Positions 21,885 to 58,481 of a stretch of 64,000 nt of DNA are shown one piece after another (position 1 is the stretch's first letter; the number at the start of each line of letters is the position of its first letter). The stretch spans positions 1,178,001-1,242,000 of the forward strand of contig NZ_CP062165.1 of assembly GCF_014844075.1 (NCBI RefSeq), read 5' to 3'. The stretch comes from Paenibacillus sp. JNUCC-31. Its GTDB lineage: Bacteria; Bacillota; Bacilli; Paenibacillales; Paenibacillaceae. The notes under the pieces were generated by a model. That model was given only the letters and a program-made list of their open reading frames with translations, searched no databases and was not told the origin of the DNA. Made by a program: the position numbers and the translations under genes.

Positions 21885-22190
21885 AAAAAAACCTCAGCAT
21901 CCCGTAGCGTTTGCAGCGCTAGGGACGAGAGGTTGAATTCCCGTGGTACCACCCTAGTTAGCGGACGAACGTGCTTCGTCATCCACTCCCTTTGGACCTG
22001 TAACGGCGGTTAACCGATGCGGATTTCCATTCCTGAACCCGAGTGTTGCTCCGGTCGGTCACAGGATGGTGTAATCACCGCATTTCTCCAAGGCGAGTTC
22101 GTGAAATACTGTCAACCGACTTGCACCAACCGCCGGCTCTCTGTCATGTACAGGACTCACTACTGATCCTTATCATCGAAATATGTATAC
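21885..22190 (-). promoter_or_regulatory. T-box riboswitch (leucine) upstream of leuS
   Basis: The T-box sequence AGGGTGGTACCACGG is at 21941-21955. The terminator helix (AGCATCCCGTAGCG pairing with the region up to 21935) ends in a seven-T run at 21885-21893. Upstream lies Stem I with a GGTTGGTGC motif, and GAACTC gives a CTC leucine specifier codon at 22095-22097. Uncharged tRNA-Leu should stabilise the antiterminator and allow leuS transcription. Confidence 0.93.
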
Positions 22191-23386: not shown

Positions 23387-23578
23387 CTAAGGAACCGAGG
23401 ATGTCCTATTTGGCCACCAGACCTTCTTTTTCAATCGTAAGGAACTCCAGACGCGTTATTTTCTAAAAACCTCCTAAAAAACGCTACAAAAGGACCCTAA
23501 TTTTGTTATAACGTGTCTCAGGTTCCTTAGCTTTCGGAAGGCGCTTCCCCCCTTAATAAGCCGTCTCAGATTCGTTAG
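23387..23578. repeat. Intergenic F-F-R-R repeat element, copy A
   Basis: Four copies of a ~25 bp motif (consensus close to CTAAGGAACCTGAGACACG then TTATTT): forward at 23387 and 23437, reverse ending at 23530 and 23578. The nested inverted repeats could fold into a long stem. A second copy at 58288-58481 has the same layout and aligns when reverse-complemented, including the centre (AAAAACGCT) and the outer end TTCGTTAGCGCTC/TTCGTTAGTGCTC. The whole gap 23238-23904 has no gene. Confidence 0.8.
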
Positions 23579-23592
23579 CGCTCCACCCTCTG

Positions 23593-23682
23593 CGTCAAAG
23601 CAAACCCTTCGTAACTAGGAACACGACCACAGATAGCGCTGATACGAAGGACCTCAAGGAGAAGGGCTAACCTGCTTTGACG
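23593..23682. repeat. Long imperfect stem-loop beside repeat copy A
   Basis: CGTCAAAGCA (23593-23602) and TGCTTTGACG (23673-23682) are perfect complements. Inside, CCCTTC pairs with GAAGGG and CCTTCGTA with TACGAAGG as an alternative. There is no coding frame and no U-run. Confidence 0.6.
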
Positions 23683-58039: not shown

Positions 58040-58110
58040 GTTTTGGGTACGAAAACTCTCCAGTTTCGAACTCTCTCTCTGTATACATAGAGGAGAAGTA
58101 ATGGAAATCA

Positions 58111-58150
58111 AAAAGGGACACATCAACGAATGTTGAATGTGTCCCTTTTT
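58111..58150 (+). terminator. Terminator of the oxidoreductase gene
   Basis: AAAAGGGACACA pairs with TGTGTCCCTTTT, with an inner CAAC/GTTG stem, followed by T's. Confidence 0.87.
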
Positions 58151-58287
58151 GTGCAGTTAAGAACTGTAACGCTATCTGGAAGCTGAACAGATCACTTATA
58201 CAAGTGCATGTCTTCAAACCCACTGAAAGCGGAAGCCGACCTGAACGTGTCAGGGCATGGCATCTTGAATGTACAAGTAAGCGAGCA

Positions 58288-58481
58288 CTAACGAACCGGA
58301 GACGTCTTATTCAGGGATTTGAAGTGTATACAGAAAACTAAGAAACCTGAGACACGCTATATCAGAATAAACAGCCGTTTACAGCGTTTTTGTCAGGAAA
58401 TTCAGGAAATAACGTGTCTGAGGTTCCTTACTTTTTAGAAAGAGTATCTGAAGGCGAAATAAGACGTCCTGAGTTCCTTAG
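58288..58481. repeat. Intergenic F-F-R-R repeat element, copy B
   Basis: Same four-part layout as copy A: forward motifs begin at 58288 and 58338, reverse motifs end at 58431 and 58481. The inner pair spans 94 bases, exactly as in copy A. Copy B aligns with A along its full length when reverse-complemented. It lies between convergent genes, and the surrounding 58040-58520 has no gene. Confidence 0.8.

What the first reader, a model, noticed from the sequence alone, without database searches (positions are those of the whole stretch)
23387..23578. Two-copy intergenic element with forward-forward-reverse-reverse motif architecture
Seen directly: a ~25 bp motif near CTAAGGAACCTGAGACACG plus TTATTT occurs four times at 23387-23578 and four times at 58288-58481. 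The spacing is nearly identical: forward starts 50 bases apart in both, inner forward start to inner reverse end 94 bases in both, reverse ends 48 and 50 apart. Copy B matches A end to end when reverse-complemented, including the outer TTCGTTAGCGCTC/TTCGTTAGTGCTC and the centre. Outer and inner motifs are subtypes: outer ends GACGTCTTATT, inner ends GACACGTTAT. Such an arrangement folds into a long nested stem and is conserved in layout more than in base identity, so it may be a structured RNA, a mobile mini-element or a chromosomal binding array. I know of no name for it.
Basis: partly seen in the sequence, partly recalled or inferred. Interest (0 to 1): 0.8.

Follow-up and report, generated by a model that had tools for sequence, protein, structure and literature searches.

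The report
Phased four-site intergenic DNA element
A repeated stretch of DNA between genes in Paenibacillus and its relatives carries four protein-docking motifs at rigid spacings and a nucleosome-like A/T rhythm, so it probably holds an unknown DNA-wrapping or DNA-bending protein complex rather than making an RNA.

Summary
The two window copies belong to a family with at least 50 whole or broken copies in this genome. A paired-motif search matches 119 of 246 sampled genomes of the order; a similar one matches 2 of 360 sampled genomes of the rest of the class. Each element has four 22-bp modules (TAACGAAY...YTAT), two forward, two reverse. The middle step is 60-62 or 69-72 bp in 277 of 279 elements; the outer steps are nearly always 50. 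These are 6, 7 and 5 turns of 10.1 bp. Outside the modules, A/T peaks recur every ~10.1 bp in 247 of 279 elements with one shared phase, and in 34 of 34 from other genera. In 20 element pairs at the same locus in two species, key module bases changed in 8 of 640 cells, spacers in 238 of 1120. Forward and reverse motifs do not co-vary within a genome, so the RNA-stem reading fails. Best reading: a host-maintained nucleoprotein site where an unidentified protein binds four in-phase operators and wraps or bends DNA. Binder and function are unknown.

The parts
23388..23577 (.). Element copy A (steps 50, 70, 48); looks like a drifting copy
   Evidence: spacer phasing not significant (p 0.45); the copy at the same place in G001 has steps 50, 70, 50 (L259)
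23388..23409 (+). copy A outer forward module F1
   Evidence: matrix 25.5 bits
23438..23459 (+). copy A inner forward module F2
   Evidence: matrix 29.0 bits
23508..23529 (-). copy A inner reverse module R1
   Evidence: matrix 34.4 bits
23556..23577 (-). copy A outer reverse module R2
   Evidence: matrix 29.8 bits
58289..58480 (.). Element copy B (steps 50, 70, 50); canonical, A/T phased (p 0.001)
   Evidence: at the same place in G053, G001, G084, G089, G079 with middle steps 70, 70, 71, 80, 70
58289..58310 (+). copy B outer forward module F1
   Evidence: matrix 33.9 bits
58339..58360 (+). copy B inner forward module F2
   Evidence: matrix 29.0 bits
58409..58430 (-). copy B inner reverse module R1
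   Evidence: matrix 38.1 bits
58459..58480 (-). copy B outer reverse module R2
   Evidence: matrix 29.2 bits

Best explanation
The element is a DNA-level docking site of about 180-193 bp for a sequence-specific, DNA-wrapping or DNA-bending protein complex. Shown here: four modules in forward-forward-reverse-reverse order; steps close to whole numbers of 10.1-bp turns; A/T-rich stretches every 10.1 bp between the modules with one shared phase, as in wrapped DNA; far fewer changes in key module bases than in spacers in copies inherited in place; no convincing RNA pairing signal. Inferred: the four sites face one side of the helix; an unidentified protein of this bacterial order binds each module; the bound units contact each other across the bent DNA; the particle acts as an architectural or insulating site downstream of genes, often between convergent genes. 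New copies arise from time to time by an unknown route.
For: Geometry: 44 full elements of this genome, found through single modules; 80 loci of named genomes; 279 elements; middle step 60-62 in 136, 69-72 in 141, 64 and 80 in one each, 45-100 allowed. Same-locus changes of about one turn in the middle step: 61 against 70 and, at the locus of copy B, 70-71 in five genomes against 80 in a sixth. A/T phasing: spacer-only fit R2 0.49-0.51 at 10.0-10.1 bp in three classes, 0 of 300 permutations each; amplitude 0.22-0.26 against 0.05-0.06 at the best flank periods; 247 of 279 elements, phase concentration 0.942; 34 of 34 elements of other genera, 0.950. Selection: (key 8 of 640, middle 88 of 800, spacers 238 of 1120, 10 bp outside 99 of 400). 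No stem covariation within genomes. Context: 24 convergent, 18 tandem, 0 divergent, 3 overlapping a called frame in this genome, against 33, 98 and 45 for other intergenic stretches of this and named genomes. Array growth in 50-bp steps too (FFFFRR at 6285851).
Against: No binding protein was found: HTH_ParB and Y1_Tnp gene counts do not track the elements. A wedge model (parameters recalled) predicts no more intrinsic bend than spacer-shuffled versions (142 of 279 more bent), so phasing can mean bendability at most. Window copy A lacks significant phasing; 32 of 279 elements do too. One element has a middle step of 64 (L391). Distribution is patchy: 127 of 246 genomes have no match with that pattern (it misses some motif dialects), so any function is dispensable at order level. 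On 19 aligned elements two of five measures lean toward pairing. No expression or binding data. The ORF calls behind the context counts are a simple heuristic.
Confidence: 0.6

Rival explanations
1. Selfish or commensal mini-transposon: the four modules are binding sites of a transposase supplied in trans (inverted/direct-repeat ends fused into a minimal element), and conservation reflects mobilisation rather than host use.
For: Near-identical dispersed copies; only 14 of 32 G053 elements compared have a matching G000 element locus (G000 set incomplete); a site with 300 bp against 36 bp in the relative; hit number from 0 to about 180; tandem units of about 300 bp; units with flanking hairpins in G172 (by eye).
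Against: Copies inherited in place keep the modules (8 of 640 key changes against 238 of 1120 in the spacers), which mobilisation alone does not explain. No clear autonomous copy in the loci read: one split copy (1581171, R2-like module 1.44 kb from R1) has two frames between, one a DUF1801/OmdA protein, one without Pfam match. Eight of the 25 recurring neighbour clusters listed were checked: transporters, oxidoreductases, response regulators, one unmatched. The middle step is tied to the helical turn. No clean target duplication seen by eye at three sites.
Confidence: 0.2
2. Chromosome-domain site: a centromere-like, nucleoid-occlusion-like or origin-domain anchor.
For: Elements crowd toward the origin: 37 of 50 in this genome and 40 of 50 in G053 lie in the origin-proximal half (dnaA at 3406252); 37 of 40 in G023 and 23 of 25 in G016.
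Against: Those four genomes are one genus and share loci. No bias in G178 (9 of 16) or in the listed part of G151. The TAAGG subtype is not biased (5 of 10). Many relatives have no match. ParB/Noc-type gene numbers do not differ in step with the elements.
Confidence: 0.1
3. Strong DNA-gyrase or other type II topoisomerase site, like E. coli BIMEs.
For: Location after genes and between convergent genes; A/T-periodic arms, as in the gyrase motif (PMC6379681, passages).
Against: The E. coli gyrase motif has a 10.75-bp period and a central cleavage region (PMC6379681, passages); here the period is about 10.1. The 61 and 71 classes move the dyad by half a turn relative to the arms, which a twofold cleavage core at the dyad should not tolerate (inference). 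Gyrase is universal (recalled), the elements are patchy.
Confidence: 0.06
4. Structured RNA with nested long stems.
For: Copy B minus strand folds better than shuffles (z -5.6). On 19 elements the share of paired cells and the covariation score exceed most shuffles (12 and 13 of 500 reach them).
Against: Pairs with changes on both sides (10 against a shuffled mean of 10.9) and pair types (33 against 33.9) do not exceed shuffles; several pairs are broken in most sequences, e.g. 16 of 19. z near 0 within two genomes; across genomes the F1-F2 pair, which cannot form a stem, scores as high as the stem pairs. No Rfam match at the gathering score over the window elements or nine further loci.
Confidence: 0.04

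Closest known systems
REPINs mobilised by RAYT transposases
   Same: Short dispersed intergenic elements with inverted motifs, persistent, variable copy number (PMC8049555, passages; rest recalled)
   Different: Two hairpin motifs there (recalled), four modules without stem covariation here; element-rich genomes often lack any Y1_Tnp gene (13 of 20)
E. coli BIMEs / strong gyrase sites
   Same: Repeats downstream of genes (recalled); periodic, nucleosome-like arms in the gyrase motif (PMC6379681, passages)
   Different: 10.1 against 10.75 bp period; rigid four-module geometry; found here essentially in one bacterial order
Noc or parS arrays (dispersed specific sites for a chromosome protein; recalled)
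   Same: Tens of sites per chromosome, origin-proximal in one genus
   Different: Composite 180-193-bp phased sites instead of single short palindromes; no link with ParB/Noc gene number
Nucleosome-positioning DNA / bacterial histone particles (PMC12701072, title and start of abstract in a search listing)
   Same: A/T every ~10.1 bp with shared phase, period below 10.5 as in left-handed wrapping (recalled)
   Different: Four strict sequence-specific modules; no histone-type protein was looked for
MITEs
   Same: Short, dispersed, some near-identical copies with imperfect terminal repeats in one subfamily (12 of 16 letters, my reading)
   Different: No clean target duplication seen; the conserved core is internal and helically phased

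Membership tests
REPIN/RAYT | Co-occurrence with a Y1 (RAYT-type) transposase gene | tested here: not met
   Y1_Tnp in 7 of 20 element-rich genomes and 10 of 20 with no match; 3 of those 20 show 1-5 hits with a wider pattern (G116, G123, G147)
REPIN/RAYT | Motif pairs form a conserved hairpin | tested here: not met
   no excess pairing within elements of one genome; mixed, see report
MITE | Terminal inverted repeats with target-site duplication | tested here: inconclusive
   imperfect end repeats in one subfamily; no clean duplication by eye at three compared sites
MITE | Related autonomous transposon in the genome | tested here: inconclusive
Strong gyrase site / BIME | About 10.75-bp periodic arms around a central cleavage site | tested here: not met
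   period 10.10-10.15; dyad phase differs by half a turn between the two classes
Strong gyrase site / BIME | Gyrase binding or cleavage in vivo | not testable with these tools
   needs cleavage mapping
Structured RNA family | Compensatory base changes in stems | tested here: not met
   one search mixed (two of five measures lean toward pairing)
Structured RNA family | Match to a described family | tested here: not met
   Rfam 15 at gathering scores
ParB/Noc-type chromosome sites | Origin-proximal distribution | tested here: inconclusive
   met in 4 genomes of one genus, not in G178 or the listed part of G151
ParB/Noc-type chromosome sites | Bound by a ParB/Noc-family protein | not testable with these tools
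   gene counts do not track the elements
Nucleosome-like wrapped particle | A/T periodicity near 10.2 bp in phase along the wrapped DNA | tested here: met
Nucleosome-like wrapped particle | Physical wrapping around a protein core | not testable with these tools
   needs footprinting or structure

The most novel reading that the evidence does not exclude
A sequence-programmed bacterial nucleosome-like particle: about 18 or 19 turns of DNA wrapped left-handedly around an unknown protein of this bacterial order that reads four in-phase operators, dispersed as a lineage-specific system of chromosome architecture whose motif dialects co-evolve with the binder.
Probability: 0.3. Interest if true: 0.95.

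Novelty: new variant of a known kind. Interest (0 to 1): 0.78.

Why it matters
The bacterial intergenic repeats that I know of are mostly hairpins, terminators or remnants of transposons (recalled). Here is a repeat family whose conserved property is helical phase: operators set at about whole turns, A/T rhythm at the wrapped-DNA period, one-turn variants common and half-turn variants nearly absent (1 of 279). If the binder is found it would give a defined, repeated, sequence-specific wrapped nucleoprotein particle in a spore-former group, and the range from no hits to about 180 across relatives makes its role directly testable.

Tried and rejected
RNA stem: covariation tests negative within genomes, mixed on 19 aligned elements. 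REPIN/RAYT: no gene association. Extra ParB/Noc paralogue: no link; a third weak match occurs in 4 of 20 element-rich genomes, and three or four matches in 5 of 20 without a match. The 20 'without' genomes were chosen; three of them (G116, G123, G147) have 1-5 hits with the wider pattern. Plasmid or phage origin: no match for copy B in the plasmid or phage collections, and none for the exact corrected pattern in viral contigs. Gene-linked regulator: no element-specific neighbour family seen (8 of 25 listed clusters checked). Origin-domain site: supported in one genus, not in two others. I first took the crowded region for the terminus; skew and dnaA showed it is the origin. Intrinsic curvature: not predicted. 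Literature: nine searches of open-access papers showed nothing on this element in the rows listed (6-15 per search, of up to 1,757 papers found); subscription journals are not covered.

Full report
OBSERVATION. The two copies are present as described. In copy A the modules start at 23388, 23438, 23508 and 23556; in copy B at 58289, 58339, 58409 and 58459. The paired forward-forward pattern with up to 2 mismatches is found 57 times forward and 54 times reverse in this 7.55-Mb genome, and never when the pattern is read backwards. The bacterial group is named from the titled loci and from a 97% match over 1438 bases between a stretch of this genome and a locus of Paenibacillus xylanivorans (L138); the order name Paenibacillales is my inference.

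ANATOMY. A matrix built from this genome gives the module cTAACGAAYCtnAgACACGyTTATtt. The stretches read hold 50 whole or broken copies, not all that the pattern finds; at least one further hit (3589816) was not fetched. Of the 50, 44 are full forward-forward-reverse-reverse elements: F1-F2 is 50 bp in 42 of 44, R1-R2 is 50 in 40 of 44, and F2-R1 is 61 in 5 and 69-71 in 39. These were found through single modules, so the steps were not preselected. Broken forms also occur: lone modules, pairs, a copy whose last module is 1.44 kb away, and one FFFFRR array that grew in 50- and 51-bp steps. In the 80 listed loci of named Paenibacillus, Cohnella and Saccharibacillus genomes the middle step is 60-62 in 53 and 70-72 in 25 of 78. 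Its pattern fixes one arm at 50 bp; arms that do not match the pattern have 50 in 42 of 51 and 49 or 51 in the rest. Over 279 distinct elements the middle step is 60-62 in 136, 69-72 in 141, and 64 or 80 in one each, although 45-100 was allowed; outer steps are 50 in 526 of 558, with 48-52 allowed. These 279 include same-locus pairs and near-identical copies, so they are not independent.

SAME-LOCUS JUMPS OF ONE TURN. At one locus this genome has a middle step of 61 and G053 has 70. At the locus of window copy B the step is 70 here and 70, 70, 71, 80 and 70 in G053, G001, G084, G089 and G079. The middle step therefore changes in place by about one turn while the outer steps stay at 50.

PHASING. 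Between the modules A/T-rich bases recur every 10.1 bp. Fitted on positions outside the modules only, R2 is 0.49-0.51 in the 61, 70 and 71 classes with amplitude 0.22-0.26; 0 of 300 permutations reach it in each; the best flank fits have amplitude 0.05-0.06 at other periods. That profile was made symmetric, so its positions are not independent. Element by element, without that step, 247 of 279 show it in the top 5% of their own shuffles, with phase concentration 0.942. For other genera I fetched 38 stretches aimed at hits and two arbitrary ones. 31 of the 40 held 34 full elements by my criteria; nine held none, including all four of G208, whose dialect departs most. All 34 show the phasing, with concentration 0.950 and middle steps 60-61 only; many have other motif dialects such as TAACGGAC. 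Peak period 10.10-10.15. The steps 50, 61 and 71 are thus close to 5, 6 and 7 turns. The period is below the 10.5 of free DNA, as in left-handed wrapping (recalled), and differs from the 10.75 of the E. coli gyrase motif (PMC6379681, passages read). Because the 61 and 71 classes move the arms by half a turn relative to the dyad, the constraint is between the arms, not with a core at the dyad (inference). A wedge model did not predict more intrinsic bend than in shuffles (142 of 279 more bent), so I claim bendability, not curvature. Copy B of the window is phased (p 0.001); copy A is not (p 0.45), and with its 48-bp last step A looks like a drifting copy.

SELECTION. G053 is a close, largely collinear relative with 48 forward and 44 reverse hits for the paired pattern at up to 3 mismatches and none in the control. 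In 20 element pairs at the same locus with identity of at least 0.69 (18 with both flanks matching, 2 with one), key module positions changed in 8 of 640 cells, module middle positions in 88 of 800, 28-bp spacers in 238 of 1120, the centre in 176 of 956, and the 10 bp outside in 99 of 400. Six further matches below that identity were left out: two are the same place with unrelated element sequence (910504 and 4705660), four are one-sided cross-matches. Bias: the G053 loci came from a pattern that tolerates 3 mismatches in one arm, and loci where G053 lacks an element were not part of the test. At the spacer rate an arm of 16 key positions would carry about 3 changes; 8 in 40 two-module arms were seen. 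So the bias cannot make most of the difference (inference).

NOT AN RNA STEM. Within this genome and within G053 the forward and reverse modules pair no better in the same element than across elements (z -0.04 and 0.25 for F2-R1, 0.16 and -0.54 for F1-R2; an earlier test on 44 elements gave 0.73 and 0.99 for Watson-Crick pairs). In the G172/G178 set pairing is lower than shuffled (z -4.4 and -6.9), where orientation was not harmonised. In the mixed-species set it is higher (5.8 and 6.3), but so is the F1-F2 control that cannot form a stem (7.5): species dialect, not pairing. On 19 aligned elements the share of paired cells (78.8% against 77.7%, reached by 12 of 500) and the covariation score (reached by 13 of 500) lean toward pairing. 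The cells with a change on both sides are reached by 53 of 500, double-sided pairs by 384, pair types by 360, and several pairs are broken in most rows. Rfam at gathering scores gives nothing for the window elements or for nine further loci.

DISTRIBUTION. 119 of 246 genomes of the order have at least one match with up to 2 mismatches, in 26 of 46 genera, and four genomes show a single control hit. With a wider pattern, 31 of 38 genomes of the order and 2 of 360 others of the class match (3 hits and 1 hit), with no control hit. Forward hits run from 0 to 180 (G172; G178 has 165 forward and 174 reverse). No match for copy B in plasmid or phage records, and none for the exact pattern in viral contigs.

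PLACE IN THE GENOME. With a simple ORF caller, elements in this genome lie between convergent genes in 24, tandem in 18, divergent in 0, and overlap a called frame in 3. Other intergenic stretches of at least 150 bp, in this and the named genomes, gave 33, 98 and 45. G053 gave 27, 12, 2 and 3; named genomes 19, 27, 12, with 7 overlapping and 8 at an edge. dnaA is at 3406252. 37 of 50 copies here and 40 of 50 in G053 lie in the origin-proximal half; G023 37 of 40, G016 23 of 25, but G178 9 of 16 and no bias in the listed part of G151 (exact matches only, G178 clusters merged, G151 list cut at 65 of 113 hits). Origins of the last four genomes were placed from the ParB/Noc gene positions. The bias is seen in one genus only.

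MOBILITY. Near-identical dispersed copies exist: three here and several in G053. In that subfamily the shared stretch starts near GGGGCTGTCTC and ends with a hairpin GAGGATGTCCC...GGGACATCCTC (by eye). In G172 the shared unit of about 310 bp has a hairpin on each side and often stands in tandem (by eye). At one locus G053 has 300 bp where this genome has 36 bp, a terminator-like hairpin. So copies do spread, by an unknown route, but the module core is what is kept.

SEARCH FOR THE BINDER. I could not list whole proteomes. Two families were tested on 40 chosen genomes: Y1_Tnp (7 of 20 element-rich, 10 of 20 without a match) and HTH_ParB (present in all 40, usually 2 per genome). Neither tracks the elements. 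Of 25 recurring neighbour clusters listed, eight representatives were scanned: seven are transporters, oxidoreductases or response regulators, one has no Pfam match.

CONCLUSION. Shown: a family of rigidly spaced, phased four-module DNA elements whose modules are kept in place, found here essentially in one order. Inferred: a wrapped or bent nucleoprotein site with an unidentified binder. It works like an architectural site; it is not shown to belong to any named family.

Noticed in passing
window 21918-22185, minus strand: T-box leader upstream of the leucyl-tRNA synthetase-like gene (Rfam RF00230, 111 bits); ordinary.
   Followed up: no
window about 58107-58151: Terminator-like hairpin between the convergent gene end and copy B (read by eye).
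   Followed up: no
window about 23592-23681: Inverted repeat GTCAAAGCA / TGCTTTGAC just outside copy A (read by eye).
   Followed up: no
L099 5852-6144 (G000 6285851): FFFFRR array: the first three forward modules are nearly alike, steps 50, 51, 50.
   Followed up: partly
L098 5172-6755 (G000 1581171): Split copy: an R2-like module lies 1.44 kb from R1 with two frames between, one a DUF1801/OmdA protein.
   Followed up: partly
G178 C1:1337308-1338316 and G172 C16:114513-116284: Tandem arrays of elements with periods near 300 bp.
   Followed up: partly
L396-L415: Flanking hairpins of the G172/G178 units vary in sequence but stay paired by eye, unlike the modules; perhaps terminators or transposition ends.
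   Followed up: no
G000 910504 and 4705660 against G053 L308 and L297: Same locus in two species carries unrelated element sequences (identity 0.59 and 0.51): replacement or very fast change.
   Followed up: partly
listed loci and the 34 elements: A 70-72-bp middle step occurs among the titled loci only in Paenibacillus (25 loci); the 34 elements of other genera have 60-61, so the extra turn looks derived.
   Followed up: partly
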